From contig NW_026570246.1 of assembly GCF_019649055.1 (NCBI RefSeq), forward strand, positions 806,001-870,000: a stretch of 64,000 bases of DNA. Direction: 5' to 3'. The DNA is from Paramacrobiotus metropolitanus. Its lineage: Eukaryota; Tardigrada; Eutardigrada; Parachela; Macrobiotidae. A model generated the notes under the pieces. That model was not told the DNA's origin. It searched no databases and was given only the letters and a program-made list of their open reading frames with translations. A program made the position numbers and the translations under genes. Each line of letters begins with the position of its first letter. Position 1 is the first letter of the stretch. Below, in pieces: positions 39,138 through 60,172 of this stretch.

Positions 39138-39143
39138 AACCGA
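39138..39143. repeat. Left 6-bp target-site duplication, AACCGA
   Basis: AACCGA directly precedes the first base of the left terminal repeat and is repeated directly after the right terminal repeat at 61812-61817. Six bp is the normal Polinton duplication length. Confidence 0.93.
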
Positions 39144-39290
39144 AGCAGCAGGATCGGCTCTATCAGCCAACTTTTTAAAAATTAGAATTAATAATTCTAT
39201 TAATAAATAGAAAATCGAATTAAAAAAATGAATTTCCAGCGTGGGAAAAATAATTTCGATAATTCGGAAAGAAAAATCGTGATTGGCTGG
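39144..39290 (+). repeat. Left terminal inverted repeat of the Polinton
   Basis: 147 bp; matches the reverse complement of 61665-61811 at 146 positions (one A/C difference within the AATTAATAATTC stretch). Begins with AG, as Polinton ends do. Confidence 0.95.
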
Positions 39291-39570
39291 TTCCAGTTAG
39301 CTGCTGGACCAATCACATCACAGGAAACACTTTGAATCTACCATTGCATTTTGCTTCTCCAAAAGGTCTGAGTTCTGCAGAACAAACTTTTCAAAGTTGG
39401 CTTTGGGAACTAAGTTGGGAAAACTATTATCTTCGTTTTCGTACTAGAGTCATCTCTATCAACCAAGTCAGCACGAGCTGGCTTATCGATTTGTAAGTTG
39501 CTTTTGAGTGCAGTGTACTAGGTGAACGATCGTACTGGTACCAACACAGGGCGAGCGAAGCGACGGTTGT
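39291..39570. other. Polinton subterminal region, no gene seen
   Basis: Between the left terminal repeat and the end of the TBP-like gene. Just inside the repeat, GATTGG and its complement CCAATC frame a short imperfect palindrome (39281-39315). Otherwise nothing recognised. Confidence 0.5.
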
Positions 39571-40762
39571 TCACAGCTTTGATTTTAATTCCGTTAACGC
39601 TGCATTCAAGCACTCCACAGACTTTGCGCCCAGAAAATTACATTTCCCGAATGAAAAGAACAGCAGTGCATGCGGATAAGCGAATAGGCAAACCAGTAAA
39701 TAATTCAGGAGTATAGGATAACTGCAGGCGATTACTAATACTTTCCAGATTTAACTTCTGACCAAAGTTAAAGGAACCAATTACATTAACAATACGATAA
39801 TTTGTAACCATACAGCGATAACCATACTGACGTAATACACTAGTAAAATAATGCAAGAGAGCGCAGGACTCCCGTCTAGATGTGCCGCCGTTGACTGTAA
39901 TCCGGCCATTAGCATATAGTTGACAGTGACCTTTAATGGGATGCAGTGTCCGGAGGAGTAAACCGGAAAATCTATGCGGTAGGTACTGGGCCATCGACAG
40001 TGTCTTCTCCAACTGAGCGAGGTCCAAGATGCAGTTTAGCTCCGCAGTCGCCACAACATTGGTCACCTTGACAGTCTGTTAATACGAGTACCATTGCTAC
40101 TACGTATATGCAAAATCAACTGGTACAAATGACTAACGATTCGTAAGGATTCTTACGGTACAAATACTCTTACCGATCCAGTGGACGGTTCCGCATTCGC
40201 ATTCATCTTGGGTCAGCTCTTTCTTGGTATCCGGTCGCTCTCTCATGCAGGTCGTGCAGGTCTTCTGGTTCAGGTACCCCTCCAACCATCTGGCGTACGC
40301 AACAGGCTTATTCCACTTGTCTGGACGTTCACTGGACAGCTGGCAAAACGATGGACACTTCAAATCGTCCAGGTTGAGAACGGTCGCTGGCTTCAGAATG
40401 CTGGCTAGGACGGCACACTTGTCTGCACCCTTTGCATAAAACTGCACATCGTACTGACGCTCGCCCTTACAATGAGGAAGGCCACAATCGTGTTCGTCAC
40501 CGAAATCGTCAAACATAACAGAGTACCAGGTATCGATCGTATTACGCAGGCTGCGGATATTTTCTGACAATTGCATGCCAAATATAACACCCTTGTTCAC
40601 ATTACGTAATCCATATTCTTCAACAATGTATTTCTTAGATGGATGGAAAACTGTCGCGAACATACTCTTGCCTTTCTCAGGACAAATAATAGCAAAATGC
40701 TTAAACACTTTAACATTTTGAATCTCAACATATTTAGCATCAACAACACAGGGAACAGCCAT
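39571..40762 (-). CDS. TBP-like protein with N-terminal Cys-rich domain (one frameshift)
   Basis: Exon 1 (40157-40762, ATG at 40762) encodes about 200 residues with Cys pairs (CGLPHC, CPSFC, and CTTCMRERP...CECG, zinc-ribbon-like). An 81-nt intron (40076-40156, phase 0) leads to a C-terminal domain resembling the TATA-binding saddle. First repeat: VATAELNCILDL, PHRFSGLLLRT, YANGRITVNGG, VLRQYGY. Second repeat: YRIVNVIGSFNFGQKLNLES, SYTPELFTGLPIRL. The Phe residues of RFSG and PELF occupy the DNA-contact positions of TBP. The last about 30 residues (GKCNFLGAK block to the stop at 39571) are in the +1 frame after about 39,655, so the assembled frame is broken or shifted at the end. It shares a motif-rich upstream region with the PC4-like gene. 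TBP itself binds promoter DNA to start transcription; here that role is inferred. Confidence 0.75.
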
Positions 40763-40858
40763 TTTGACAGCACTCTAATAAGACAAGTGAACATCAAATC
40801 CAAATGTGACAACTGATTTTGCTGTAGCTCGTATTTGAAGTGTATTGGCAGTGCTCTT

Positions 40859-40983
40859 GTGGCTAACCTACACAATGGTGTAGCTAGCCGACGCAGTGGC
40901 TAACATACGCAATGGTGTAGCTAACCGACGCAGTGGCTAACGTACACACTGCAGTGGCTAACTTACACAGTGCTAGCCTAACG
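40859..40983. promoter_or_regulatory. GTGGCTAAC repeat cluster, divergent TBP-like / PC4-like genes
   Basis: Seven degenerate copies of GTGGCTAACnKACRCA (for example GTGGCTAACCTACACA, GTAGCTAACCGACGCA, GTGGCTAACGTACACA) in tandem at 16-21 bp spacing between two divergent genes. Promoter role is inferred from position and recurrence elsewhere in the element. Confidence 0.7.
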
Positions 40984-41128
40984 ATTTGGTGGATGAGCTT
41001 TAACCACTTATCAGTATAAAATCAGTCTACAGCCAGAGCCCTGAAAAACAGTTTTCAGTTTTGTTTTCCTTTTTGATCTAACTTTGAAAATCGCTGGTGA
41101 CCTTTTGTTTTAACAACATTTTTCAATA

Positions 41129-42290
41129 ATGGAATTTCTTGCTGATATCCCGTCGACCTCGACCCCGGCCCGAAAGAATCCTAAGCGCAAGATCACCATG
41201 AAGATCTCCAAAGACCGGACGCAGCTGGAACCTATCAAGCGCCAAAAGAAATCCGACATCGCCAGCAGCAGCAGCAACAGCGCATCCGTTCTTACCGGCA
41301 AGCATGCCCGCTACGCCTTTACTGAACAGGGACTGCCCGTCTACAAAATCGGGTTCGACAAGTTTGCCCTGGTTCGCTGGTTGGAGGAGGGACGAAGGTG
41401 GTCCTAGCCGAATTCAAAGAGCAGCCGGATGGCACCTTTAAACCTGTGGATGCCAACAAGTACATCGCCATGACCATCAACAACTTTTTGCGCCTCTGTG
41501 GATTAATGCTGACTGGTAAAGCCGACTTGGTCTCGTCGTGCCCGCCGTTGTTCGATAATGGAAAGCTGTCTCCTCACTACTGCCTGGACGACAACCTGTA
41601 CTTCCAGTGGAGCCGCTACAACAACATGGACCTGGCCACTGTACGCCGTTTCAACCTGTCGCCTAACAAAGATTTGTACCCAACCAAGGTCGGTATTTCT
41701 TTCGGTCGGAAGGCCTACGAAGGACTCAAGGAACTGGTGGTGGACTTTACGCTGCTGAAGGAGATCCGGGACACCAACGAAGCTCACGATGTCGCCGCGG
41801 ATCCCAAGCCTGGTCTCGCTTCCGTTTCGTTGAAACAGGTTAGTTGAATACGTACAATTATTTTAATTTTACTTGTTACAATTTACACTGTCATTTTTAA
41901 TTGTCGGTTTTTAACAATGTGTAATTTTTGCGATGCGTGTATTTTACAACATATAATTTTTGAGCTGTCAGTTTTTGCACTTTGTTATTTTTAAACCGTC
42001 AGGTTTTCACACTGGTCCGATTTAATTATTAGGAATTGGCTGAAATTATGTTCCGCAATATTCGTGAGCACCGTGAAAATGCGACTGGTCGTACGCCGAT
42101 GCGCGGAATCGCTACAGATGAAGAATGGAACACTGCCGAAAAGGACGTTCTGGAAAAGAAGCAGATTCATGGTGTGTTGTTGTTGCTTAATCAGCTTGAT
42201 GTGGGTCAGTGTATTGATTTAGATGTTGATGGCTACTTGGCACAGTTCCGTAAGGAAGTGCGTGCCCAGTTGGATAAAATGATGATGTAA
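41129..42290 (+). CDS. Protein with two PC4-like domains (one frameshift)
   Basis: PC4/SUB1 is a general transcription coactivator that binds single-stranded DNA. The ATG at 41129 opens a Lys/Ser-rich, disordered leader (KNPKRKITMKISKDRT, SSSSNSAS) like that of PC4. A first PC4-like unit follows: IGFDKFALVRWLEEG, then VVLAEFKEQPDGTFKP and an amphipathic helix. A second: NMDLATVRRFNLSPNKDLYP, TKVGISFGRKAYEGLKELV, matching the strand-strand-helix pattern with the Gly/Lys-Pro turn. A 194-nt intron (41839-42032, phase 0) joins the C-terminal exon 42033-42290 (FRNIREHRENATGR...), which is helical and unrecognised. Frame changes by -1 near 41,390-41,400 inside the first unit, where one frame ends in TAG. 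The PC4 call rests on pattern similarity by eye and needs a profile search. Confidence 0.55.
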
Positions 42291-42328
42291 CGCGTAACGC
42301 TGCATGCCGTAATTACTGGTTATTTATT

Positions 42329-42843
42329 TCATATTAATGCACGAACAATCTGTTTTTCTAGAAATTTGCTATTGCATATTTCTGTATTAAGCTGGAAATA
42401 ATGATTAACAGTTCGGCAAACCATCTTGTCATTGCTCGCCTTATTATCAGTAAACATTTTAACAATTGAGCCAAATGGCTGACCACTGCACCTCTGTAAA
42501 ATAAAAACATACAGTACTGTCCACACACAGTAGAAAATTCAGACTGCAACACTTCGCCTTGGGTCACTAGTCTAACACTACCAGAAAATCTTTGCCTGAG
42601 TGCGTTGCTGTAGTACGCCGGTAATTTCCCATTCGAGTCGAAAAATTCAATGACACTGGCTTGGTCCTGGTATATGGCTACCCAATGCTCTCCCGGCTGC
42701 TTTGCTGGGTCCGTATTGACGATACATGATGCAGGATAAGGCTGTAGATCCATTGGTACTTCATCGGCAGCAAACACACCACGGAATGTCGAGCTAGTAA
42801 TAGGGTTAGCCCGCATGGCCGCCGATAATTGTTCCGAGTTCAT
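42329..42843 (-). CDS. Adenovirus-type cysteine protease (Polinton PRO), frameshifted near the C-terminus
   Basis: Maturation protease (peptidase family C5 type) that would process virion proteins. Start ATG at 42843 overlaps the capsid stop as ATGA. The catalytic His lies in GEHWVAIY, the acidic residue region in VIEFFDSNG, and the catalytic Cys in STVCGQYCMFLF. After CMFLF the family-like continuation (RCSG..FGSIVKMF) is in the -1 frame, ending at 42329, while the original frame runs into an unrelated tail ending at 42358. The slip point is in a T-rich run (about 42,488-42,500). The active-site residues are all upstream of the break. Confidence 0.85.
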
Positions 42844-44183
42844 GTTGAGAAGTCAGCAATCAATTGACGATGCTGGTTAAACTCAATAATACTATCAAAC
42901 ACCATCATGCACACCATCATCAGCGATTTAGCATGTGACTTTGCAAAGGTCACCGACACACTTAAATTTCCCTGTTTGATTAAAGTCAACGGTCCACGCC
43001 CCGTATGACCAGGTGTCAAATCAAAACCGAAAATAGCGTATCCTTCGTTATAGCCATTACGATTGACCGACCAGCATCCGGTGGGATGGTTTTTTGCGCC
43101 CAGTGCATCCAGCAACCCATCGTAACATTCCAATGACTGATTTTTCGCAAAATCAGCATTGTATGGTTTGGTCGGATAACTTTGTCCATCCACTTCCACA
43201 CTTATCTGCCGTACGTCGAAATGGTGAAAATTAAATGGATTTTTCTGGTAATTGCCGTGAAAATCTTCGCTGTCCAGGAAACCAATGAATACCACCTTAG
43301 GAATTTGACCAATCTGCAGATTGGTCACTACAGTACTTTGGGTGTTCTTCGGAATGTCGGCCACCCGCATGACAATCCGTTCAATGTGGTACTTAACCGT
43401 GCGATTCAGTAACTGGCCGGCTACAGCGGTCATAAAGTCCGGAGCCGGAATATAACGGCGTACTGATAACCGAGCATTCCGAATGAATGGTTTGTATGTT
43501 TTGGTATCTTTATCGGCATCCCAAACACGTAGGCAAAATTCTGGCCGGTTCATAACTAATCGTATTTGGACAGGAATGCCCGTACAGAGCGGTTTGCTTT
43601 GGTCAAATAAATCGGCAAATATTTTTCCGGATAATTGTACATATTCTCCCTTCCCAAAAAGGTCATGCCGCCATACTTCACCAGTGTTATCGGTCTGATT
43701 GTTCATTTTTCCCGGCAAATCCAGCGCATAGCCCGCTGAGCTTAATTGCGAAAATTGCGCTTCCGGAGAATGAAATAACAATGATTCAAAATAAGCGCGA
43801 TACGGATAAAATGTTGCCGCGTCCGAGATGAGGCGATTAGCCACCGTTACATGAACCGATTGGAATATTGAATGCAGAAAATTGTTCACCGGGGCCACCC
43901 CCTCAGCGGCAGTGATTATTTCAAAATTATTCTGGTTATTTTTCTTGACCTTTATTGCCACTTCCAACTCCAGTACCATGTCACCTAAACTCAACAGTCC
44001 GGCCGTACTAGGAGGAATGTAGAAGTTAATATCGCCAGCCGTCCCATCCTCGGTAAATATCGTTGTAGGATTAAGTTTCTCGTGTTCAGTGCGCCATCGG
44101 TCGGTCAATGTTGCAGGCAAAGCAAAGAGCTGATTTTCCAACTGCATTGCTGGCTCCGAATTGGGCATCATCATCATAGCCAT
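42840..44183 (-). CDS. Major capsid protein (double jelly-roll, Polinton hexon)
   Basis: 447 residues, intact. The block APVNNFLHSIFQSVHVTVAN followed by ATFYPYRAYFESLLFHS is the conserved signature of Polinton/adintovirus double jelly-roll capsid proteins, and the length fits the shorter adintovirus-type hexons. It would build the icosahedral shell with the penton. It lies between the small basic protein (ending 44186) and the protease (starting 42843) with essentially no spacing. Confidence 0.88.
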   Translation of the reverse strand: MAMMMMPNSEPAMQLENQLFALPATLTDRWRTEHEKLNPTTIFTEDGTAGDINFYIPPSTAGLLSLGDMVLELEVAIKVKKNNQNNFEIITAAEGVAPVNNFLHSIFQSVHVTVANRLISDAATFYPYRAYFESLLFHSPEAQFSQLSSAGYALDLPGKMNNQTDNTGEVWRHDLFGKGEYVQLSGKIFADLFDQSKPLCTGIPVQIRLVMNRPEFCLRVWDADKDTKTYKPFIRNARLSVRRYIPAPDFMTAVAGQLLNRTVKYHIERIVMRVADIPKNTQSTVVTNLQIGQIPKVVFIGFLDSEDFHGNYQKNPFNFHHFDVRQISVEVDGQSYPTKPYNADFAKNQSLECYDGLLDALGAKNHPTGCWSVNRNGYNEGYAIFGFDLTPGHTGRGPLTLIKQGNLSVSVTFAKSHAKSLMMVCMMVFDSIIEFNQHRQLIADFST

Positions 44184-44185
44184 GA

Positions 44186-44584
44186 TTACAGAAAATCAGG
44201 AATATTTGTCGGGGGAATTCTACGGGCACGCTTTGAAGTTTTACGGGCTTTACGAGTACGCTTTCTCCGCACACCTTCGCCTTGCTGCATCCGTCTACTA
44301 ATAGCTTCGCTGGCTTGTGCAGCAACGTCTTTAATAGCTCCGGTGGCTGCTTCTTGCAAGTGCGGTGTTGCTGCTTCGAGTGCTGCCTTAGCATGCGGTG
44401 CCGCTCTTCGTATAATAGGTTTAGCAAATGAAGAAATCTTAGCAATAATATTCTTTAATACTTGCGCAAAACCAGAACCATTCTGCAAAGTACCACGATA
44501 GCGCAGAAGAGGGCTACCACCAGTCTGCGCCACGAAAACGTCTTCATACCGCCGTGGGTCAGGAACATACGGTACTAAAGGCAT
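44186..44584 (-). CDS. Small basic virion protein (pVI/core-like)
   Basis: 132 residues. N-terminal half contains GGSPLLRYRGTLQNGSGF and an amphipathic Ala/Ile-rich helix; the C-terminus is strongly basic (RRKRTRKARKTSKRARR). Position between penton and capsid genes and the Gly-Ser-Gly-Phe plus helix layout resemble the adenovirus pVI/pX-type minor proteins of Polintons. Exact homology not established. Confidence 0.6.
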   Translation of the reverse strand: MPLVPYVPDPRRYEDVFVAQTGGSPLLRYRGTLQNGSGFAQVLKNIIAKISSFAKPIIRRAAPHAKAALEAATPHLQEAATGAIKDVAAQASEAISRRMQQGEGVRRKRTRKARKTSKRARRIPPTNIPDFL

Positions 44585-44585
44585 T

Positions 44586-45581
44586 TTAAAACAGCTTCTG
44601 CGGTCGGAAATGCAATTTCACCAACGATTTGCCGTTCTCGAACTTGGCGTTTTCTCCCAGGTCATCAGCCAATGTCAAGTGCACTGTCTCAAAATGCTGA
44701 GCAATAACAGGGACATAATGGGCCTTGTCGAACCTTGCTTCCACGAGAGGATCCGTACCGCCTCTAATAGGTACATTACGCAAAAACTGCGCTGCAGTAT
44801 CGCCAATTAAACTGTAGTCAGCCACATCACAATAAACAAATAAATTCTGATTTTGCAAATGGGCATTAGCCGCTTGATCAGCAATAAATTCCCGAGTTTC
44901 GGAATAATTTTCATCCTTGCATTTTTCTATAAACGTTTCGACAACGCCATCAACAGCCAAAAAATCTGCCTTTTGTGGGGTGAGATCCCAAAAGTCTGTT
45001 GTTAGGTGTGATTTTCGAAATCCCAGTATTTTCTGCAATGCCATGGATTCCGGGGGAAAATACACGGTTGTTCGTGGTGTTCCAACAGTAATTTTGACCC
45101 GTTGATTATTATGGCTATCGAGTTGCATTTGCACATACTTATTTTCTGGCAAAATGCTCAAGTTCTTGAGAAGGCTTCCGTTGACGCGGAAATAAGGGCT
45201 CTTCATGCTCATCACTGGTGCGTTCTTGTTGATCACCTCCAGTATTGCCGCCACATTTTTATAATTACCAGCGGGCACTACTATGTCCTCAGTATACGAA
45301 CTCCGCCCTAGTATTTCTACTAACCGATCCGTATTGGCCTCTTTCTCTTTATCCCAGACTCTAGTATACTCCAGGCCATATACAGTATCCAGAATAATAT
45401 GCTGGTCATGACTCAGAGTATATAAAGAATTATTGCACTGAAATTCCACCAAAGCCATTTCCCAGCGCCCTTTGAGTGATATGGGATGCTTAAGGCGTGT
45501 TGTCCAGTCCGATGCAGTATTTTCGGTGAAACTGTTGACATCGCTGGGTAGCGTTAAGTAGAATGGCGATCCTTCAAACAT
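44586..45581 (-). CDS. Penton / minor capsid protein (single jelly-roll)
   Basis: 331 residues, intact. The N-terminus FYLTLPSDVNSFTENTASDW and LKGRWEMALVEFQ is the typical Polinton penton start (Phe-Tyr-Leu-Thr-Leu-Pro-Ser, then 'net effect on Leu-x-Gly-x-Trp-Glu'). It would form the capsid vertices. Its start overlaps the integrase stop by 28 nt, and 1 nt separates its stop from the next gene. Confidence 0.85.
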   Translation of the reverse strand: MFEGSPFYLTLPSDVNSFTENTASDWTTRLKHPISLKGRWEMALVEFQCNNSLYTLSHDQHIILDTVYGLEYTRVWDKEKEANTDRLVEILGRSSYTEDIVVPAGNYKNVAAILEVINKNAPVMSMKSPYFRVNGSLLKNLSILPENKYVQMQLDSHNNQRVKITVGTPRTTVYFPPESMALQKILGFRKSHLTTDFWDLTPQKADFLAVDGVVETFIEKCKDENYSETREFIADQAANAHLQNQNLFVYCDVADYSLIGDTAAQFLRNVPIRGGTDPLVEARFDKAHYVPVIAQHFETVHLTLADDLGENAKFENGKSLVKLHFRPQKLF

Positions 45582-46608
45582 TTTTCACTGACCCACGAGT
45601 CGTGTTCCGGCCCGTATCCCAACCACCGTACTAGTGCTTTACCTTTTCGCCGTTTGATTACAAAATCAATAGTATGCTCTTTATTCTCTACATTCCGCAC
45701 GCGTGATAATTCTTTCTCGTAAAATTGCCCTTTAATAATTACACCGTGCTCATCTTTTAGCCGATATACAGGAATCTTGTGCCGTACGACTTTGGCAATG
45801 GTGAATATTTCTTCTTTGAAATTATAATTATATCCTTTGTCTAATTTTCCCTTGTTAACAGCTAGACGAACCGTATCGTCCACTTTAAACTTGGGTTCTT
45901 CAGCGACAGTGTCTTTGTACAGCTTGTTAAATACTTCCAATGAATTTTCTTCGGTGACATCAACAGGGCGCATGCCGTGAGCGCGGTGGACAGAACGGTT
46001 GTACGAATGCACCAGGTCATTGAGCTTATCGGTATAGCGTGTGGACACTCGGTGTCTGAATAGCCGGACCATGCGTGATTTTATAGTGCGTATTACTCTC
46101 TCCACCATGGCACATTTTATATCTTCATTCTCGGATGTAAAAAATTCCACTCTTTTGGATTTCAGAAATGACTGAACAATATCATTCACAAATTCGCGCC
46201 CTTTATCAGTCTGTACACGCATCGGTTCACCCAAGTCATCAAACACTTTTGCAAAGCATTTCTTGTTTCCGTAGCATTTTTGCTTTTCATTTGAACCACA
46301 CATAGATTTTTAGAAAAGCAGTCTATGGCAAACAACAGATATTTTATACCATCATTCTCTTTGTAATATTTAGAAAAATCAGCCAAGTCAATTTGATACT
46401 GCATTTGAAGGTCCGTGACCACAATTTGATTGCGTTTAAAACGTTTCGAACGGTCCTTTGTTACCGTGTACTCATCCAGTTCCTCCAACAGCTCCTGGGC
46501 CTTCCCACGGTTCAGTTTGTGTTGCTTTGTCGCTTGATAAAACCTTTCTACGCCGCCAAAGCTTCCGGGATTTTTTGCGTCCAGATATTTTTTCAGGAGT
46601 TGATTCAT
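45554..46608 (-). CDS. Retroviral-type integrase with C-terminal chromodomain (one frameshift)
   Basis: Inserts the element and makes the 6-bp duplications. First ATG at 46608 (MNQLLKKYLD). Catalytic triad residues are visible: Asp in YQIDLADF, Asp in VQTDKGREF, Glu in MVERVIRTIKSRM. The C-terminal domain ends with a chromodomain: DFVIKRRKGKALVRWLGYGP followed by DSWV. Between the first and second catalytic Asp the frame shifts by -1 near 46,260-46,275, so the protein is split as assembled. Chromodomains on integrases usually read histone methylation and steer insertion; that role is inferred. Confidence 0.9.
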
Positions 46609-46682
46609 TGCAACACGTTGAGACACAATTTATCCGGAAAACTCGGCAAAGGCGTAGAACTGATGGCAGAAAAGAGGACATG

Positions 46683-47135
46683 CTACGGTAAGGTTATCCA
46701 CTTGGCTCGTGGATTGCCTGCGCCTTTTTGCCCTCCTTTTGTTTTGCGGGCACGCAGTCGACCGGATGGTGGTGTATGAAAAATTTCCTGGTGGTCAACT
46801 TCTGCTGGTGTAGTGGGCGGACTCAACTGACGCCTGGGTACTTTGCGTTTGGGCTCTTTAGCCGGCTCGGGTGGTTTTGGCGCGACGTACTTGGGCACTT
46901 GGATGGGGTTTTCTTCGGGAATCGCACGTGGCTTCAGTGCAAGAAAGCGCTCTAACGTTGAAGATAGCTGGTTGGCCTTCTCGTACTCGCTTATATCATT
47001 ACGGTTAACGATCTTGGCAACTAAATTGTCTAGGGATATCACTTCTACCGCCTCCGGAGGTTGCTTGTTCAACTGAATTTTATTGGCCAGGCGGTCGTCC
47101 ATTATTCGCTTAGGTACAATTAAAAATTCATCCAT
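46683..47135 (-). CDS. Conserved-position Polinton protein, proline/basic-rich
   Basis: 150 residues, start MDEFLIVPKRIMDDRLANKI, then a Pro/Lys-rich C-terminal half with RLRARKTKGG. It sits between the small membrane-active-like protein and integrase, overlapping the former by 8 nt. A Phe-Leu-Ile-Val-Pro-Lys-Arg start is recurrent in Polinton virion accessory proteins as I remember them, but I cannot assign a function. Confidence 0.55.
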   Translation of the reverse strand: MDEFLIVPKRIMDDRLANKIQLNKQPPEAVEVISLDNLVAKIVNRNDISEYEKANQLSSTLERFLALKPRAIPEENPIQVPKYVAPKPPEPAKEPKRKVPRRQLSPPTTPAEVDHQEIFHTPPSGRLRARKTKGGQKGAGNPRAKWITLP

Positions 47136-47454
47136 TGCCGATTAAACTGCTTAGCACACCGGCAATGACGGGTAAAAGTGCTCCAATGAATCCGCCCTGC
47201 TGCAGGATCTTTCGCTTTTTCTTGATCGGGTATCGGCGTAGTGCCAAGAGCCTCAGGGACTTTCGGTGTCGTTTACAGGTATCCAGATGAGCCGGCGGCA
47301 AGGTAATGGTATTTTTAATAATATTGACTGCAATCTCCTCTATCCCTTTCAGCTGGTTCCGATTAACATACTCTAGTAAAACCTTCCGCTGTTTCGGCCT
47401 CAGACTCCGTAAAGTAATAATGTAGGGCGCTAAGGTCTTCACTCTTTCCGACAT
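47128..47454 (-). CDS. Small basic protein with hydrophobic C-terminus (Polinton virion protein)
   Basis: 108 residues: helical, Lys/Arg-rich body (LRPKQRKVLLEYVNRN, RHRKSLRLLALRRYPIKKKRK) and a C-terminal GGFIGALLPVIAGVLSSLIG segment that looks membrane-active. Proteins of this plan next to the ATPase are common in animal Polintons and have been compared with adenovirus core/lytic peptides. Overlaps the ATPase gene by 16 nt. Confidence 0.7.
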   Translation of the reverse strand: MSERVKTLAPYIITLRSLRPKQRKVLLEYVNRNQLKGIEEIAVNIIKNTITLPPAHLDTCKRHRKSLRLLALRRYPIKKKRKILQQGGFIGALLPVIAGVLSSLIGNG

Positions 47455-48128
47455 GGCTTTGGCAGGGTACTGTTGTTCTTACTTAAATAAATCCGCATAT
47501 ACTGATCCGGCATCACATGAGACCGCACCCTTAAATAGTCGGGGCAGTTACTTCTCAAGTCCAGAATGATTGGCTGGTACGCCTCCGAAGTGACCTTTCG
47601 GTAAGCGTCCACCAGGTGCGGTAGACCCATCTGACGAGCCAGTGTACTAATCTGATTTACGTCACGCACGTTCTTAAACAGTACTAGATACTGGCAATTT
47701 AGCATAATGTCTCTCATCGCTTTTCCCTGTTTATAGAGATTTTGAAGGATCAAAATCACGGATACATTTTTGTGATGTATGCCTTGCGTAAATAACTTTG
47801 TACATCGCATATCCTTGTTAATTACGTGTGACAAGTCGTCAATAATAAGCAGCGTGTGTTGATTAGTATTAAAAAAATCATCATTGGCTAGTACTTCTTC
47901 TATGCCCTTAACAAATTCCACTTCCGGCTCTGCCTCTAGTAGCAGATCAAATCCTTTCTGATATTCACCATAACAATACACAATGCGATCAGGCGGTCGG
48001 TCTATCATCTGCTCTCGGTTTTTAATTAAATTAAACACAAATTCACTTTTTCCCGACATAGTCGGTCCGCATACACAACAGCCAAAGCATGCCTTAAAAC
48101 GTGGATCACTATCAAGCACTGAATACAT
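47439..48128 (-). CDS. Genome-packaging ATPase (FtsK/HerA, A32-like)
   Basis: 229 residues, intact. Walker A is GPTMSGKSEF; Walker B is LLIIDDLSHV; a downstream Gln/Asn-containing segment ILILQNLY matches the sensor region. It would pump the element's DNA into the capsid. First gene of the compact minus-strand virion block. Confidence 0.92.
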   Translation of the reverse strand: MYSVLDSDPRFKACFGCCVCGPTMSGKSEFVFNLIKNREQMIDRPPDRIVYCYGEYQKGFDLLLEAEPEVEFVKGIEEVLANDDFFNTNQHTLLIIDDLSHVINKDMRCTKLFTQGIHHKNVSVILILQNLYKQGKAMRDIMLNCQYLVLFKNVRDVNQISTLARQMGLPHLVDAYRKVTSEAYQPIILDLRSNCPDYLRVRSHVMPDQYMRIYLSKNNSTLPKPCRKE

Positions 48129-48209
48129 GTTTGCGCATAAAAAAAAACAACAGTTAGACGTACAAAAGCGCTTTCAAACGCACACAATTGGTCGAAAACA
48201 CTTAAATGT

Positions 48210-48542
48210 CTACGTCCACCAATCCAAAGGCTGGGCTCCTCCCCATGCCAGGTCGTACACACGGTCCACCCACGCCCGCCCGCGCATGGCCCTCACGTAT
48301 CCGCAGAATGGATTGAGGTACACGTGCTTTTTCCACGCATCCATCCCATCCTCCCAGTCGTCCGACAGAGTGCGCTTGCAGTGGAAACACGTTGCAAAGC
48401 ATGTGGCCGAATATATGAACCCTGCCTCTGCCAACGAGCGCGACGCGTTAAGCCTGCAAGGATGACACCAGTCACTATACGTTGCCAATCGCGCTTCGTA
48501 CGTGGCGTACTCGGAACAGCCAAAACTTTCCATGAAACTCAT
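48210..48542 (-). CDS. Single BIR-domain (inhibitor-of-apoptosis-like) protein
   Basis: 110 residues. RLATYSDW, LAEAGFIYSA, then CFHCKRTLSDDW, a His in WKKHVYLNPFC and the final Cys give the zinc set C-x2-C-x17-H-x6-C and the Gly-Phe of a BIR domain. No RING is present, so it is survivin/BIR-only in layout. BIR proteins bind caspases or chromosomal passenger partners; which applies is unknown. It faces the GTGGCTAAC repeat cluster at 48,618-48,698 and is intact. Confidence 0.8.
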   Translation of the reverse strand: MSFMESFGCSEYATYEARLATYSDWCHPCRLNASRSLAEAGFIYSATCFATCFHCKRTLSDDWEDGMDAWKKHVYLNPFCGYVRAMRGRAWVDRVYDLAWGGAQPLDWWT

Positions 48543-48617
48543 TTTCGTTTATTATTTAAAAAGGAAAAGAAATCAAGGAAAATTACGGCTTTTATTTCGT
48601 TTGTTTCCGGTGGTATA

Positions 48618-48698
48618 GTGGTTAAGCCACACGGTGGCTAACCGACGCGGTAGCTAACCGACACAGTGGCTGAGCGACACGGTGGCTAACCTACGCAG
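48618..48698. promoter_or_regulatory. GTGGCTAACCGAC repeat cluster between divergent genes
   Basis: Five tandem 16-bp units: GTGGTTAAGCCACACG, GTGGCTAACCGACGCG, GTAGCTAACCGACACA, GTGGCTGAGCGACACG, GTGGCTAACCTACGCA. It lies between the BIR gene (-) and the small membrane protein gene (+). Confidence 0.75.
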
Positions 48699-48779
48699 AG
48701 TCTTACCAACACAGCAGATGAGTATTTCAAGTTCAGTTTGTAATTATTTAAGTGAACAGTGAACGCCTAAGAGAGCAAA

Positions 48780-49010
48780 ATGGCGAATTTACAGGGCATG
48801 ATTCCCAGGCTGGACCTGGTCGAGCGCATCGACAACCGCCTCGGAAAGTTTTGTATTGGTTTATTGTGGTTAATGTTGATTGTTATTCTAATAACGTTCG
48901 TCTGCCTTGAAAATATTATAAAAGTTATTGCCCACCGCCCTCGGCTGTTGGACCTCTGCGTGAACGACACAGCATGTAATGCCACTGCTATCTACAACAT
49001 TACGGGCTGA
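48780..49010 (+). CDS. Small single-pass membrane protein
   Basis: 76 residues, ATG at 48780. A central hydrophobic segment (CIGLLWLMLIVILITFVCL) is followed by a short tail with two Asn-x-Thr glycosylation sequons (NDTACNATAIYNITG gives NDT, NAT, NIT). No family recognised. It is driven from the opposite side of the repeat cluster at 48.6 kb. Could be an envelope-like or host-membrane protein; function unassigned. Confidence 0.55.
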   Translation: MANLQGMIPRLDLVERIDNRLGKFCIGLLWLMLIVILITFVCLENIIKVIAHRPRLLDLCVNDTACNATAIYNITG

Positions 49011-49294
49011 CCTTTCGTGAACTCCCTCCTACGACTTGTCGCGGCAGTCATTTCTGCAACAAAAGCGGACTAAAGATCAACACAAGACTCCTGAATCCAG
49101 TCCTTACATTGGCAGTTCTCCTTCCAACCAGTGGGAGATGGGGCAGTCGGAATATGTATTTAATGCTGTTGATGTTCTGACTTTAATAGTTACTAATTGA
49201 TTTTGTAATGTTGATTTGCTGCGGTTTTGTCGACCTACTGTAATTACCATTGCAAAATGAATTAAAACGTCAAACGTCAGATTTTATTGTTTAT

Positions 49295-52200
49295 TCACTT
49301 TGGTACATAGCCAAACGGTAAAGTGTTCCAATTCTCAACAATTCGGCGCTTGTCATAGGTCATACGAAACTTCTTAGACATGTCGCGCTGCCGCAAAGTC
49401 AAACTGGGCTTATGGCGCTGTATAGAATCAGGATAATTAACATTCACTTCTTCTGAAGTATCCAACATCGACAACATGCGCTCAAAATTGATCAGTTCAC
49501 TAGTAGCTCCATTGAGAGTAAAACCTTTAAGCTTAACGATGCTGACGTCATCATTAGTCCTGTACGCGTATGTTTTCGGACCCAGGCTAACGAATTCGGT
49601 AATGTACTGTCCGGGTTTCAGTTCGTCCGTAAGGTCACCCAAAAACTTGCCCGTTTCCGGCTTGGGCTGGTCGGGTCGGTCCACGAAGATAATAGAGTCT
49701 GCAATATAACAGTGCAATTGCGGATCGTGTATAACGCAGCACGTCTTTGACTGACCGGTATCGAAATATAACAGTCGGTCCTGGACCTGTTCCATGAACT
49801 GCAGTAAATGCAGCCGAGCCCAACAAGTTGTAAACCTGCGGTCAGTTAGAAACTGGGAAAGGTCACGGTCAAAACAAGAAAGGTCATGGCCAGAAACGTG
49901 CGAGGTCACTAGTACTTACGCAGCAAGTACAACATTCGTGCTAGGATTATCTTCAATGAAGCCTTCCTCCTTGGTGTACATGACCTGCAGGACTTCTTCT
50001 CCAAAAAGATCCCACGAGTGGACATGGTACTGGCCGGACAGCAGCAGTTCGTAAAAACGGGCCGGGTCACTAACGTACTCCGTGGTCAACTTGTTGTTCT
50101 GCATACCCAAGCGGCCCCAAAAGCTACAACAAAACATAAATACTGCTCATGAAGTGGGAATCCTGTAACCTACTTACCTATTCAGCATCAGTTTGGCCAA
50201 GGAGCGCAAACCGGGATTTTCCTGCACCTTCTCACTGTCCAACTGTATGGCTTCTTTGGCTTGGTATTCCTGGATGTATTGGGTCTTTTGGTCTTCGGTC
50301 GTAACGTCCGTCGGCCATCCACTGGCCTCGGTCTTGATCTTTAGGAATTTGTTGATGTATCCTTCAAAGAGGCGGTCTTCGTGCTGGTCAAAGTGCCATA
50401 CCTCATAGATTTCCGCGATGACGTAACCACGGTCCAGCGCTGCCGCGATTTCCGGTGTACACCATGTGCCAGTCAGCGCGCGCTCGTGCGGCTCGTGCTC
50501 ACAAGGGGCGTTGATGCGCTGGTCGGCACAGGTCCGACAAAGTGGAAAGGTCAACTTGTCCTTGCTACGGTACGGAAGGATGGGCAAGTACAGGTCATCG
50601 GGCGGCAGCACCTTGCAAGACATAAGGCCAAAGTAACTGCGCGGATCCGCAAAATCCTTGGTGATGATGATCGGATGTCCGGTGGGATACCGTTTGGTCT
50701 TGTTGACGAACGGATATTCGCTGCAGACGTCGTAGTAACAGATCCGTTCATCCTCCACCACCTTGTGATGGAGCTTGACCGCGTTGGTGCGTCCACCGTA
50801 GAAGGCATCCCGCGGATTGATTCCGACTTGAATGTTGACGGTGCGAACATAATCGTTGAATTCGGGGTCAGTGACGCGCATCCTGTCATACTCATGTTCC
50901 CATACGACAATTACCTTGTATCCCATATCTTTAAAATACTGGTCGCGGTCCATGGTTTCCCGGTAAACGTCCGACATCTTTAGGCCGCGGTATGGATGCA
51001 CGGTATTGCCGGCAAAGCACTGAGGACAGCCGTGGAACCAACAGCCGTGAAATTCGTAAACCGTATTCGTCTGGACACAAAATCCGTCCACAAAGTACGA
51101 GCCGATCTTGTGCTCTGAGCCGGTGACCTTTGACTGAATTTCGCACTGACCTTCGGCTTCCATCCACTGTAGCCAACGAAGGGCCTTGGCGGACTGTGGG
51201 CGGTTGCGTCCGAAGCCCTGGTTGGGAATCAGGCCGATCTGCTCCGGCTTCAACAGGAAGGTCCGCCAGTACACGCTGCAGACTCCGGCAATGGTGGCGG
51301 CCGAGACAAAAGGATTCAGGCCATCACTAATGTCCGTGAAGAGCTGGGCAAACTGCTGGCAACACTGACGCAATACCGTAACGTCATTCTGACAATACTG
51401 AACGAACTCTTTCCGAAAATCAAAAACTCCGCCCTTGGCCGCAAACTCCGCATCGTACCACCGGTCAAAATCCATCCGGTCCTTCATCTTCATACTGCCA
51501 TAACCGTACTCGTCCTTGGAAGGAAAAGGCACAACGCGGTTCCAGTTCTCGGGCCGATTGAATCGGTGGGGAAAGGTTCCCTTGCTGGCATTCTGCAATC
51601 CAAAGGTCGCCGGCCATTTGGACAAACTTTGCGGATTGTAGTTGTAGCTGTCACGGAAGTGGATGTTGTACGGTGCCGGGACGTCCAACATCAAAATCTT
51701 GCCGCCATTCATGATGACCTTTGGGACGATGCCATTACGCAGCAACCAGTTGAGGATAAAGTATCCGTCAAACCCCTATGAAAAGCAGTCCGATATACCA
51801 GAGTGAATCTAAATGAACTGTCTGGACAGAATACCTTAAAATTGTGGGCAATGACGTAATAACCATGGTGGTTTTCCTGGAAAAGGAATGCGCAAAGGTC
51901 ATCGGTAACGTCCTGGCCAATATCGCTAACAGAGTCCGGGAAAATCCATTCAACCCCCTCGTCATTCTGCACCACCTATTATAACACAGCATTTTGTAGT
52001 TACACTATGAAATATATGCAGCGTCAAAACATACCGCCAAGTTGGGCACAAGGTCGCCTGACGATGAAACATAAGTTTCAAAATCAAAATACAAAAACTT
52101 GGAGGCGCTGCATTTCGTCTTCCGGTCCAACGTAAACGGCTTGGGACGCATGTAGCAGCGATGATCAGCCGGGAGGTCAAACACACCGCATGTCTTGCAT

Positions 52201-53471
52201 TTGGTCTCACCGCAACGATGGGGATTGTCCGGCTTTCGCCGGGCATTGGAGTAAATACATCGGCACTGGGCACACAGCCTCACGGTCGCACAGATAGCTT
52301 TACGTTGTCGATGCCGACCCTTTGCACTACCGACCTTGTGGTAATTAAAACAATCTTGCCCAGGAAAAGTACGATTACAGTCCCCACAAACAATCGGATT
52401 AACTGCATCTCGCGGGCAATCAACACGAAGGCATAAAGAACAATAAGCACTACAACGGTGATGGATGCGATTATCGTACCCCTTCATACAGTCAAAACAC
52501 CAGTAACTCTGCTTAAAAAACGCCGGCAACGATTTCAAAAGATCGAAATGACCATCATGATGCAGCAGAATTATGGTCTTCTTATGCTTATGACCTTTAT
52601 GGACTATCGCGTTCGCATGATCAACACTAGCCACAATAATGCGATATTTCGTAAGAACTCTTTCGAACGCGGGGATATCACTCAGACTGTACGGCCGCTC
52701 TGGTAAACCGGCTTCCTGGATAAGCTGCTTGGCTAACTTTGTAATCTTTCGCTTACCACGTCGCAGGCTTCGGAATAGCTTCTGGTCGTTGTCGGCTAAG
52801 GCTTTACCAATCATCAAGGCGCGCGCCATACAAAGGTCATCGTTGCCGTCCACAACCACCACGGACTTCATCTTCTTCAACCGCCGCATTAGCAATGCAG
52901 GTACATCCTTGAGACAGCGACCCACAGGAATTTCCGTATGCTGGACAAAAATTTGGAAGGAATCATCAATGATGAACTCTTCATGACTATTCAAAACGCG
53001 CTGAATATCAGCCATCCAACGTTTTACACTGAGTTCAGACCGTAGCGTCAAGGACGTGTACAAAGGGCGATTAAAATGACGAGAATCTACACGTAGGCGT
53101 ACCGCGTCATGGTCGCTTACACCAGTTAAAACAACAGACAAAATGTACTCAAGAATACACCAAATAGTTTGCGGAATATCACTGTGTGGAATATCCTTTA
53201 ACTCGGAAACTTGAATATCAAAAGTGTTAAGATGAACACGAAACTTTCGAGAATATTTACGACCGATGCACCGAACGTCAACACTATCAGCTATGCACGC
53301 ACTACCACCCCACTGGGGCACGGGATCTTCATACTCCCAGTCATCTGCTGCTGCTAATAGCGCGGCATCACGCAAAGTATCATCATCTAACTGCATATTA
53401 CCATCATCATCATCCCAATCACCATCCGCTATCAAGTCAGCCATATCAATATCTGATAATGTGTAATCCAT
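49295..53471 (-). CDS. Protein-primed DNA polymerase B of the Polinton (six exons)
   Basis: Replicates the element. Exons 52035-53471, 51835-51975, 50178-51775, 49920-50123, 49756-49835, 49295-49698 are phase-matched GT-AG and total 1,287 residues with no break. N-terminus is acidic, then Cys/His zinc-finger clusters (CFDCMKGY, CSLCLRVDCP, CGDCNRTFPG). Exonuclease motif I is LYFDFETY; motif II spans the 51,776-51,834 intron (HNFK then GFDGYFIL); motif III is the YCQNDVTVLR block. Polymerase motif A is YYDVCSEYPF; motif B crosses the 50,124-50,177 intron (KLMLN then FWGRLGM); motif C (YFDT then SIIFV) is cut by a 57-nt intron (49,699-49,755) that is itself open in frame. All five introns are 54-84 nt. 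Upstream is the motif cluster at 53.6 kb. Confidence 0.93.
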
Positions 53472-53562
53472 TTTTAAAATTTATTTGCAACACTTTCAGA
53501 ACAAAAATCACGCTAACTGAATTTTATTCAGAACAAGTGAGCATCAACTGAAATACTGATAG

Positions 53563-53616
53563 GAGCTAACGTACGCACTGCTGTTGCTAACCTACGCAGT
53601 GGCTAGGCTACACAAT
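53563..53616. promoter_or_regulatory. GCTAAC repeat cluster upstream of DNA polymerase
   Basis: Three units: GAGCTAACGTACGCAC, GTTGCTAACCTACGCA, GTGGCTAGGCTACACA, about 90-150 bp upstream of the polymerase start and just past the stop of the next minus-strand gene's neighbour. Confidence 0.65.
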
Positions 53617-54930
53617 AGTTGACAGGAAAGTTCAACACCTGACACTGCTGACGCACGTATTCAGTGCTTGCAAAGCATGTAAAAGAACAATCAGAATACA
53701 CAGGCATCAGTTCAATTAAAATGCTGTAGAAACTGGTAGCATGCAGTTCGGTTAACATGGAAAACAATTGGTCTTCCGTCGGTCCAACGATGTCCTTCGA
53801 GCGCGCAGCATGGACGGCTTCCATGGTCAGGTAAGCCCGGAAGTCGTTCCAAAACTCCTGCGGTAGCGCTAAAAAAATGAAGAAATAATTTAGTTAGTTC
53901 TTGCCGTTGAAGCCAATATAAAAATACATTTTTACCATAAAAAATTAGATTCAGTGAACAATGAACGTGAAAATATGAACATCGAACTGAACGGAAATGA
54001 ATTTTGATGAACACTGAACTTTAATGAACATTGAACTTTATGAACGTTGAACAATGAACTGAACTTGAATGAACTTGTGACCTTACGTTTGATCCCATGG
54101 GAGAATCCCGGGAAGAGCTGCGGGAGGAGCTCGTACCAGTTCTTGCCTCGGAGGCGCTGGAGGGTAGTCTGGCTGATCTTGGGAGTGGCTACGCTGCGAT
54201 GGTTGTCGCCCCTGCGCGAAATCCGCAGCTGCAGGTGCTTGCCAGAGATCCAGGCGGCGTGCAGGGTGAGAGAGAACTCTTTTCGAAACGACGGGCTGGC
54301 TAGCTCTTTCCTCTGGACAGGTGGCGACGGACTGCGGCTCAGGGCTTCGCACTCGGCGGAGAGGAGAAAGCGCAGCACTGCACGCAGCTCGCCCATGGTG
54401 GTGGCACAGCCGGCCCTCTCCTTCCCACGGCTGGTATGCAAGGTCGCGAACTGCGGGATGCCATTCTCACGGGTGATGTTGATCGTCAACGCTCCGGCTT
54501 GCGCCAAAGTCACAGTGTCCACGTTGGCGAACATCGAAACCAAGCCGCCAGGTCGGACTTGGAGGAACTCGTGCAGCGATGCTTGTTCACCGAGCGAAAG
54601 TGGGGATGGGTTCATCGGAGGCGCTGGGTCGAACGCTGGCACCAGTTGGCATGGCGGTTGAAACAGGGTAGTATTGCTGGGTTCCGGCACATGGATAAGA
54701 ACGGGAACAGGATCCGGTTCGAGCGGCGGCGGGGAGATGGCCTCGTAACGAGGCAGGAACTGCTCTTTCTGTGTATCCGGATCGACAAATCCCTCGCGCA
54801 CTTCGGGAACCACACCAGCTTCCCGCAGGATCTCATCCACGATATCGAATTCAGCGTTAAAGGACGCCACACTTTCATTAAAATTACGGCCCCAGGCCTC
54901 CCAATCCATTGGAGAAAGGTACTCGGACAT
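53603..54930 (-). CDS. Unrecognised Polinton protein, 369 residues, two exons
   Basis: Exons 54087-54930 and 53603-53868 join in phase (AAAC|GTAAGG ... TTTAG) to 369 residues; start chosen at MSEYLSPMDW. The N-terminal third is Pro/Glu-rich and disordered. The middle has two stretches with a strand-strand-helix look: ANVDTVTLAQAGALTINITR with GELRAVLRFLLSA, and GKHLQLRISRR with ISQTTLQRLRGKNWYELL. These faintly recall PC4-type units, which would make it a second single-strand-binding candidate, but I would not rely on this. The 218-nt intron is full of AATGAACnTTGAAC-type tandem repeats. Confidence 0.55.
53940..54075. repeat. Short degenerate tandem repeat in an intron (ATGAACNTTGAAC)
   Basis: Repeated ATGAACATTGAACTTTA-like units fill the intron of the 369-residue gene. 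Confidence 0.7.
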
Positions 54931-55068
54931 TTTAGAGATTAGTACAAACAAATAAATCGTGTAAGTCAAATATTACAAGTTTGTAATAGCAGATAACTAC
55001 AAATAATTTACATGAGATCGAGTTCCAGTGGTGTAAGTCAGCAACTGATTTTGCAGGTTGTAATAAAT

Positions 55069-55125
55069 CGTATACGCTAGCAACTGGCTGGGTAGACTAG
55101 CAACTAGATGGGTAAAGTAGCTACG
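55069..55125. promoter_or_regulatory. Degenerate GTTGCTAG motif cluster
   Basis: On the minus strand: GTAGCTACTTTACCCA, GTTGCTAGTCTACCCA, GTTGCTAGCGTATACG, upstream of the 369-residue gene. Weaker than the other clusters. Confidence 0.45.
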
Positions 55126-55316
55126 GAGCGTTGCTGTGGTAACGTTAAGTTTGTATGTGTGTATGCAAATACTTGTAAAAGTAAACTGAACTAACGTATG
55201 TGCGAGCACTTAATAATCCGTCAAACGTTAATTGAGACCGCAGTCGACTGATTTTTATTAATTTCATTCAACAATGCTAGAAAAATAACACAAGTAGCGG
55301 AAAAACAACAAACAAA

Positions 55317-56234: not shown

Positions 56235-56358
56235 GGTAACACAATACAGCAATAAATGTAAAAGAGCAAGGTAAAATACGCGGAACGAAGCTAGTGAGAT
56301 TGAATGTGGAATTCTGCTACAGCATCTTCTTTATATGCGAGTAAACGAGTACAAATTG

Positions 56359-56372
56359 TGTCGCTTAGCCAC
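56359..56372 (-). promoter_or_regulatory. Single GTGGCTAAGCGACA motif upstream of ANP32-like gene
   Basis: Minus-strand reading GTGGCTAAGCGACA matches unit 4 of the 48.6 kb cluster at all but one position; it is about 125 bp upstream of the start codon. Confidence 0.55.
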
Positions 56373-56605
56373 TAAACCAATAAGGATTTTCTATTTTATT
56401 TTAATATTTATTTGTCGAATGCGGCGCTCTCCACAATAGCGTACTACGCCTATTCCATTTTTAATTGAGCATTTACAGTTGTGGTGCACTACAGTAGTCG
56501 GTTAAGGTTATTTTAGCACAGATCATAGGAAAATCGTTGCAGAGCAGACGCTCACGACCATCCGCTCAAGGAATACAAGCTCTAATCATCACTAGACATA
56601 TCAAT

Positions 56606-58620: not shown

Positions 58621-58639
58621 ACATCACGCACCTGTGATG

Positions 58640-59953: not shown

Positions 59954-60172
59954 CTGCAATAAATTAACGTGTCAACAACAGAGAGCTCTGTAAAAACTTA
60001 TCGCAACATATTGAACTCAATGTGTGTATGCGTGTACATGAAGACTACAAATTTTATACTGAAAATTTCACAAAATTCCCATTTATTTTCCTTTAAATTT
60101 CTATCACATAAAATGACTTTTCCAGCCTAACTGCTATTAAAAATTTAGGAATAATTAAAAAGTGGTCTTACA
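59954..60172. other. Non-coding, possible intron
   Basis: AT-rich sequence between the GTAAGA donor at 60,169 and the acceptor of the HECT exon at 59,954. Confidence 0.4.

What the first reader, a model, noticed from the sequence alone, without database searches (positions are those of the whole stretch)
39571..40762. A Polinton encoding a TATA-binding-protein homologue
The C-terminal domain shows both TBP repeats in order, with PHRFSG, YANGRITVNGG, YRIVNVIGSFNFG and SYTPELFTGLP, fused to an N-terminal Cys-rich (zinc-ribbon-like) domain of about 200 residues. TBP is a host basal factor; I know of no TBP described as standard Polinton cargo. An element with its own TBP could direct polymerase to its own promoters or compete for host factors.
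Basis: partly seen in the sequence, partly recalled or inferred. Interest (0 to 1): 0.9.

Follow-up and report, generated by a model that had tools for sequence, protein, structure and literature searches.

The report
Polintons carrying their own TBP gene
A virus-like mobile element in this genome carries its own version of the TATA-binding protein, the factor that tells RNA polymerase where to start; the same gene recurs in most of the relatives found here and looks maintained by selection, which suggests that the elements mark their own promoters.

Summary
The TBP homologue is real and sits in a canonical Polinton (39144-61811; terminal inverted repeats, 6-bp target duplication). It is no one-off: 147 of 185 TBP loci found in the host genome lie within 20 kb of a Polinton packaging ATPase (about 8 expected), and 145 of 183 ATPase loci have a TBP that close. 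Twenty element TBPs form one clade apart from the host's TBP, track the ATPase (Mantel r 0.89) and show dN/dS 0.10-0.25: an old, selected component. Corrections: in this lineage the Cys-rich domain is not fused to TBP but read from an overlapping frame of one spliced message (two other copies do show fused frames); and this copy's TBP frame breaks in the second repeat while others stay open. A PC4-like gene lies head-to-head with it; no element TFIIB was found. DNA-contact residues are changed in a conserved way, one TFIIB-contact Glu is kept, and the patch bound by TFIIA/Mot1 is mostly lost. Best reading: the element marks its own promoters and borrows host TFIIB and polymerase. Family and selection are well supported; the mechanism is inferred.

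The parts
39144..61811 (.). Polinton element (22,668 bp) bounded by terminal inverted repeats
   Evidence: inverted repeat 39144-39299 / 61656-61811, 97%; ends AGCAGC
39138..39143 (.). left target-site duplication AACCGA
61812..61817 (.). right target-site duplication AACCGA
39144..39299 (+). left terminal inverted repeat
61656..61811 (-). right terminal inverted repeat
39638..40075 (-). TBP gene, exon 2: first TBP repeat and start of the second; frame ends at 39638 in this copy
   Evidence: PF00352 E=1.8e-22; PDB TBPs; splice model
40174..40206 (-). TBP gene, predicted exon 1 (ATG at 40206; 11 codons), inside the Cys-rich gene in another frame
   Evidence: an ATG in this frame in 8 of 8 window-lineage copies
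39571..39680 (-). rest of the second TBP repeat, in a different frame (gene broken in this copy; read apart, not joined)
   Evidence: frame 1; open in other copies
40076..40173 (-). predicted intron, 98 nt, GTAAGA...TTAACAG
   Evidence: donor and acceptor present in 8 of 8 copies, 69-103 nt (sites picked by rule, no RNA data)
40174..40762 (-). Cys-rich N-domain gene, exon 1
   Evidence: nothing better than chance in Pfam (best E=0.0073) or PDB (E=0.13)
39972..40075 (-). Cys-rich N-domain gene, exon 2 (second Cys cluster, stop at 39972-39974), overlapping the TBP frame
40763..41128 (.). 366-bp region between the divergent N-domain/TBP and PC4-like genes; tandem repeats 40859-40962; TATAAAA at 41015
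41129..41847 (+). PC4-like coactivator gene, in two frames in this copy (41129-41407, 41398-41847)
   Evidence: PF02229 E=8.3e-5, 22.5 bits, under the cut-off of 25; 29.1 and 34.1 bits in relatives
42358..42843 (-). adenovirus-type cysteine protease
   Evidence: PF00770 E=1.4e-4, 22.1 bits, cut-off 21.3
42840..44183 (-). putative major capsid protein (label by position and recall; no profile match)
44186..45581 (-). two conserved genes (44186-44584; 44586-45581), putative virion genes (label recalled)
   Evidence: matches in the same order in L063, L064, L065, L066, some partial
45554..46626 (-). integrase with chromodomain, in two frames in this copy
   Evidence: PF00665 and PF00385 below their cut-offs
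47439..48128 (-). A32-type packaging ATPase
   Evidence: PF04665 E=3.4e-5, 23.9 bits, cut-off 22.8
49295..53471 (-). family-B DNA polymerase, in several frames
   Evidence: PF03175 E=2.3e-36 for 50174-51745; phrog_1907 for 49295-49909; 52005-53471 assigned by position only

Best explanation
The gene is an element-encoded TATA-binding protein that has belonged to this host's Polintons since before their sampled lineages split, and it serves their own transcription. Inferred mechanism: the element TBP bends promoter DNA as a normal TBP does, but prefers a core-promoter sequence other than the host's. It recruits host TFIIB through its second-repeat stirrup, and so host RNA polymerase II, while escaping host regulators such as TFIIA, Mot1 and NC2. 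In the window-type lineages a PC4-like coactivator is made from the divergent gene. The small Cys-rich protein encoded upstream, as a rule in an overlapping frame, is a separate partner or regulator of unknown activity. Shown: TBP identity, residence in Polintons, single origin among those sampled, co-inheritance, purifying selection, overlapping frames, PC4-like neighbour, no TFIIB detected in elements. Inferred: splicing, promoter preference, TFIIB recruitment, escape from regulators.
For: TBP profile and PDB matches. 96 of 122 Pfam-found TBP loci and 147 of 185 in the union lie within 20 kb of a Polinton ATPase; 5.4 and 8.2 expected. 10-kb pieces of four lineages, ATPase 45-60% identical to the window's, all 4 hold TBP near ATPase, integrase and putative capsid genes. 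One clade of 20, ultrafast bootstrap 100, apart from host TBP. Mantel r=0.894, p=0.0002, n=10; r=0.708, p=0.0036, n=8 without close kin. dN/dS 0.10-0.25 in the 10 of 12 chosen pairs that gave a value. In 20 element TBPs, some of them near-identical: F99, F190, F207 kept 20/20, F116 is Tyr in 18/20, N69 19/20, N159 19/20; but T124 is Asn 19/20, T215 is Leu 20/20, V122 is Thr 17/20, V213 is Asn 17/20; TFIIB-contact E188 kept 19/20; Lys at 145 in only 2/20 and at 138 in 2/20. 8 of 9 PC4 matches other than the strongest lie head-to-head within 1.4 kb of an element TBP (one search read). TFIIB matches only at 3 loci, on contigs without a listed TBP locus.
Against: No expression, binding or solved-structure data. 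The other TFIIB-contact residue, E186, is Glu in only 8 of 20 (Thr in 10), and L006 lacks both Glu, so host TFIIB use is uncertain. The three most diverged TBPs (L045, L046, L051) lack the V122 and V213 changes. No shared promoter motif was found: TATAAA lies upstream of PC4 in the window, L011 and L007 but not in L013, L014 or L063. 38 of 185 TBP loci (one is the host's) and 38 of 183 ATPase loci lack the partner within 20 kb. PC4 was not found in the L064-L066 pieces (one window query, part of each element) nor in the L007 piece by Pfam. This copy's TBP and PC4 genes are broken, as are L012 and L016 in TBP and L011 in PC4. One host genome only; viral contigs gave no relative.
Confidence: 0.55

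Rival explanations
1. The element TBP is a competitor: it occupies host TATA boxes or ties up TFIIB to dampen host transcription, rather than serving element promoters.
For: The stirrup Glu188 is kept in 19 of 20, so it could bind host TFIIB; a single small gene can act alone.
Against: DNA-contact residues differ from host TBP in a conserved way, unexpected for a competitor at host promoters; PC4 pairing in some lineages points to transcription of its own.
Confidence: 0.2
2. The protein is a DNA-bending factor for replication, integration or packaging that no longer takes part in transcription.
For: Intercalating aromatics are kept while regulator contacts are lost; in L064, L065 and L066 TBP lies close to the packaging ATPase; PC4 is also a single-strand DNA-binding protein (PMC4931448, abstract in the listing).
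Against: One TFIIB-contact Glu is kept in 19 of 20; PC4 too is best known from transcription (abstracts).
Confidence: 0.15
3. Recent capture of a host TBP or TBP-related factor, or host TBP duplicates into which Polintons inserted.
For: TBP paralogues exist in animals (PMC3142196, abstract in the listing).
Against: 20 of 20 element TBPs tested form one clade apart from host TBP; co-divergence with ATPase; stereotyped position in the gene order; target duplications outside the gene.
Confidence: 0.03
4. Decayed cargo without function.
For: The window copy is broken in TBP and PC4; L012 and L016 are also broken in TBP.
Against: dN/dS 0.10-0.25 and open frames at most listed loci.
Confidence: 0.02

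Closest known systems
TBPs of large DNA viruses (megavirus, Yellowstone Lake phycodnaviruses; survey in PMC7221094)
   Same: Virus-encoded two-repeat TBP that keeps DNA-binding aromatics and loses the host-regulator patch.
   Different: Almost all such viruses were found to encode a TFIIB-like protein (PMC7221094 section 11; also the PMC4602308 passage), and megavirus also its own RNA polymerase subunits (PMC11464507 passage). Here no TFIIB is found in elements and the carrier is a ~23-kb Polinton; polinton and maverick occur 0 times in the main text of PMC7221094.
Polinton/Maverick elements and adintoviruses
   Same: Inverted repeats, 6-bp target duplication, family-B polymerase, integrase, A32 ATPase, adenovirus-type protease; conserved morphogenesis block.
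   Different: Six main texts searched for TATA, TBP and transcription-factor words gave none (PMC8097293, PMC4642659, PMC10120064, PMC11071308, PMC11071296, PMC4028283; not every word in each). Vertebrate Mavericks are reported without introns (PMC8097293 passage); the window lineage has a predicted intron.
TBP-related factors of animals (TBPL1/TRF2)
   Same: Diverged second TBP with changed DNA contacts (Trp at 116 in the recalled TBPL1 sequence; also PMC7221094 passage).
   Different: Chromosomal genes; the tree does not place element TBPs with the one recalled TBPL1.
PC4/Sub1 coactivator p15
   Same: Pfam PC4 match in the divergent neighbour, above cut-off in L013 and L063.
   Different: Larger protein (234-237 aa in those two), far weaker than the presumed host PC4 (27-33 bits against 81).

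Membership tests
TBP family | two tandem TBP repeats | tested here: met
   two stretches in window, L063, L064, L065, L066; second repeat incomplete in the window copy
TBP family | intercalating aromatics F99, F116, F190, F207 | tested here: met
   F at 99, 190, 207 in 20/20; 116 is Tyr 18/20, Phe 2/20
TBP family | saddle fold | tested here: inconclusive
   single-sequence model pLDDT 55; Foldseek top hits are TBPs, TM 0.46-0.48, one at E<=0.001
TBP family | canonical TATA-contact Thr/Val set (T124, T215, V122, V213) | tested here: not met
   replaced by Asn, Leu, Thr, Asn in 17-20 of 20; role of positions recalled. This lowers 'binds host TATA boxes', not TBP homology
TBP family | binds promoter DNA and supports initiation | not testable with these tools
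   needs experiment
Orthogonal viral TBP-TFIIB system | TFIIB homologue encoded with the TBP | tested here: not met
   PF00382: 6 matches at 3 loci, all 8 candidates scored, none on a contig with a listed TBP locus; a very diverged TFIIB could be missed
Host TBP or TRF | groups with cellular TBPs | tested here: not met
   20 of 20 element TBPs in a separate clade, ultrafast bootstrap 100, against five cellular sequences
Polinton/Maverick | terminal inverted repeats and 6-bp target duplication | tested here: met
   second copy on C232 flanked by TATATA
Polinton/Maverick | protein-primed family-B polymerase | tested here: met
   PF03175 E=2.3e-36; protein priming itself not tested
Polinton/Maverick | RVE integrase | tested here: inconclusive
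   two frames match PF00665, 18.8 and 20.1 bits, under the cut-off of 32.6; tblastn places it in the block in 4 of 4 lineage pieces
Polinton/Maverick | A32-type ATPase and adenovirus-type protease | tested here: met
   PF04665 and PF00770, both just over cut-off
Polinton/Maverick | double jelly-roll major capsid protein | not tested
   no Pfam match to 42840-44183; no structure run; label recalled
PC4 family | PC4 domain over curated cut-off | tested here: met
   29.1 and 34.1 bits in L013 and L063 against 25; no match in the L007 piece; window piece 22.5, below it

The most novel reading that the evidence does not exclude
A whole radiation of Polintons uses a second core-promoter code: a redesigned TBP, with PC4 in some lineages, that reads element promoters and plugs straight into host TFIIB and polymerase II. 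It would be a viral initiation system without its own TFIIB or polymerase, acquired once before the lineages diverged, with a partner protein encoded in an overlapping frame.
Probability: 0.4. Interest if true: 0.9.

Novelty: new variant of a known kind. Interest (0 to 1): 0.8.

Why it matters
How Polintons are transcribed in their hosts' nuclei is, to my knowledge (recalled), largely open. An element-borne TBP kept under selection across diverged lineages makes this testable: it predicts a distinct promoter sequence, a defined set of host partners and a way round host control. It would also move virus-encoded TBPs from giant viruses with their own polymerase to 23-kb elements that, as far as seen here, must use the host's, and could offer an orthogonal TBP for synthetic promoters.

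Tried and rejected
Fusion of the Cys-rich domain to TBP: rejected for this lineage. The conserved donor (40173) keeps the two frames apart in 8 of 8 copies, and the donor that a fusion would need (40156) is missing in L012-L016 as I read the sequences printed. Against this: two copies of other lineages, L038 and L067, have both domains in one open frame, in L067 with the second Cys cluster gone; I take these as secondary fusions. Misassembly: rejected. Host TBP or TRF: rejected. Chance co-location: rejected; the expectation is analytic and assumes uniform placement. Known fold for the Cys-rich domain: none found; the best were chance-level (Pfam E=0.0073, PDB E=0.13 and 0.32), and its single-sequence model is useless (pLDDT 29). 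Shared TATA promoter: not found. Rfam on the window at gathering score: nothing. Viral contigs with TBP, N-domain, ATPase and MCP queries: nothing.

Full report
WHAT IS THERE. The minus-strand frame at 39638-40066 is a TBP: Pfam PF00352 at E=1.8e-22 with two matched stretches. In the PDB the top 35 of 51 listed sequences are TBPs or TBP fusions (one, 4wzs, is named only as a protein), headed by E=1.4e-16. A single-sequence model (pLDDT 55) finds TBPs as its best PDB hits. The gene lies in an element of 22,668 bp with 156-nt inverted repeats flanked by AACCGA on both sides. The element has A32 ATPase, adenovirus-type protease and family-B polymerase profiles over cut-off, and integrase and chromodomain matches below cut-off. 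A near-identical copy sits on contig C232; similarity stops at the inverted repeats on both sides, to within one base (99.6% and 98.7% over the 1.6-kb ends compared), and that copy has its own duplication TATATA. So these are independent, recent insertions and not a misassembly.

GENE STRUCTURE, CORRECTED. In 8 of 8 copies of the window's lineage (the window itself as L009, and L010-L016) a short intron with a GTAAG donor and CAG acceptor (69-103 nt) lies between them (sites picked by rule, no RNA data). Splicing it carries the Cys-rich frame on into a second Cys cluster and a stop (window 39972-39974); the TBP frame on the same spliced message opens with its own ATG (window 40206) inside exon 1. 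Of 11 copies of other lineages looked at, 9 have the two in different frames: L041, L036, L039, L042, L007 with 68 nt overlap at the TBP ATG, L003 and L037 with 13 and 17 nt, L033 and L035 unmeasured. Two, L038 and L067, have both in one open frame. So the rule is two proteins from overlapping frames, with occasional secondary fusion. In the window copy the TBP frame breaks within repeat 2 and the remaining similarity is in another frame; the PC4-like gene is also in two frames. Other copies have these frames open.

HOW WIDESPREAD. The host genome (169.8 Mb) gave 150 scored TBP-domain matches out of 493 candidates, all over the Pfam cut-off, merging into 122 loci. Three ATPase searches (150 scored of 422, 425 and 422 candidates) gave 183 loci. 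96 of 122 TBP loci lie within 20 kb of one and 45 within 2 kb, against 5.4 and 0.7 expected. A further TBP search with a diverged query (150 of 284 scored) raised the union to 185 TBP loci: 147 of 185 within 20 kb of an ATPase (8.2 expected), and 145 of 183 ATPase loci with a TBP. The window's own broken TBP is not in these lists, so its ATPase counts as lacking one. The counts are lower bounds, because not all candidates were scored. 37 non-host TBP loci have no listed ATPase nearby; among the 25 such loci of the first set, 11 have the Cys-rich domain within 1.5 kb, and 52 of 85 Cys-rich matches lie that close to a scored TBP. Pieces of four elements (L063-L066) show TBP with ATPase, integrase and putative capsid genes in four local layouts: the window's order in L063, TBP and Cys-rich gene divergent from ATPase in L064, polymerase-TBP-ATPase on one strand in L065, and TBP head-to-head with ATPase, start codons overlapping, in L066.

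HISTORY AND SELECTION. In an LG+G4 tree of 20 element TBPs with the host TBP and four recalled cellular TBPs, the 20 form one clade with ultrafast bootstrap 100; the host TBP sits with human and yeast on short branches, and the nodes among cellular TBPs are weak (61-66). Within-element distances of TBP and ATPase correlate (r=0.894, p=0.0002, n=10; r=0.708, p=0.0036, n=8 after dropping two close kin), as expected if TBP was carried along since the common ancestor. dN/dS was 0.10-0.25 in 10 of 12 chosen pairs; the other two gave no value (dS 0, or saturated).

FUNCTIONAL RESIDUES. Numbering follows yeast TBP (roles from recall and from PMC7221094, sections 7, 11, 12 and passages). The 20 rows include near-identical pairs. 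Phe 99, 190 and 207 are kept in 20 of 20; 116 is Tyr in 18. Asn 69 and 159 are kept in 19 each. But T124 is Asn in 19, T215 Leu in 20, V122 Thr in 17, V213 Asn in 17; the three most diverged proteins lack the last two changes. These sites contact the minor groove (recalled), so they suggest a different but conserved DNA preference. The TFIIB-contact Glu at 188 is kept in 19, Glu 186 in 8 (Thr in 10). The basic patch used by TFIIA, Mot1 and others is mostly lost (Lys at 138 in 2, at 145 in 2). PMC7221094 reports for large-virus TBPs that regulator contacts are lost and that a viral TFIIB almost always accompanies them. Here TFIIB was found only at three loci away from TBP, so host TFIIB is the likely partner; the loss of E186 in most speaks against a fully host-like contact.

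NEIGHBOURS. The divergent gene is PC4-like: 22.5 bits in the window (below the cut-off of 25), 29.1 and 34.1 in L013 and L063; the L007 piece gave no match. Genome-wide, 10 PC4 matches from 78 candidates: one strong (81 bits, presumably the host gene) and nine weak, of which eight lie head-to-head within 1.4 kb of an element TBP (one search read). The window's own PC4 is too weak to be in that list. The region between the genes holds tandem repeats in two lineages with unrelated units. TATAAA lies upstream of PC4 in window, L011 and L007, not in L013, L014, L063. No promoter rule can be drawn from this.

LITERATURE. Searches (listings and abstract starts) showed no paper on a TBP or PC4 in Polintons or adintoviruses. 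Two that hold the words, PMC7786948 and PMC11125864, were checked by passages and are about other things. Main texts searched by word, passages seen: PMC11071308, PMC12220804 (TATA and transcription factor only), PMC8097293, PMC4642659, PMC10120064, PMC13419823, PMC11071296, PMC4028283: none speaks of it. PMC11464507 and PMC4602308 (passages) report TBP in giant viruses and phycodnaviruses. The nematode polinton paper could not be read, supplements were not searched, and the library lacks most subscription journals.

VERDICT. A real, old and selected TBP gene family carried by Polintons, new in print as far as these searches reach. Its role in reading element promoters is the best-supported but unproven mechanism. 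The result rests on one unnamed host genome; whether it extends to other hosts is open (viral contigs: none; no eukaryote collection could be searched).

Noticed in passing
whole genome G000: Very high Polinton load: at least 183 ATPase loci in 169.8 Mb, from over 420 candidates per search.
   Followed up: partly
window 40859-40962; L007 2319-2502: Tandem repeats (37 bp x 2.8; 22 bp x 8.4) between the TBP/N-domain and PC4-like genes, with unrelated units in two lineages; possible regulator-binding arrays.
   Followed up: partly
L066 5430-5431: TBP and ATPase genes are head-to-head with start codons overlapping by 2 bp, leaving no room for an ordinary promoter between them.
   Followed up: no
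L067 111-1331; L038: Two copies have the Cys-rich domain and TBP in one open frame (407 and 317 aa), in L067 with the second Cys cluster missing: apparent secondary fusions.
   Followed up: partly
G000 C7:604013 and 611065; C70:392466 and 399534; C1:977418 and 984472: Some elements carry two Cys-rich domain matches about 7 kb apart, only one of them beside TBP.
   Followed up: no
G000 C140:233254-253426: Three TBP loci and four ATPase matches within about 20 kb, partly in inverted order; nested or rearranged elements.
   Followed up: no
window 6411-7985: Long tandem-repeat ORFs (unit about TTQDPHQTPTHGHHKREA) with raised GC, 54%.
   Followed up: no
window 9747-10859: Two plus-strand ORFs that look like a broken Tc1/mariner-type transposase (recall; not tested).
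   Followed up: no
window 12140-13210: Glycosyltransferase family 11 gene (PF01531, E=2.5e-23), with similar-looking ORFs at 14522-15483 (by eye).
   Followed up: no
window 61107-61538: Small C2H2 zinc-finger ORF at the right end of the element, weak Pfam matches below cut-off.
   Followed up: no
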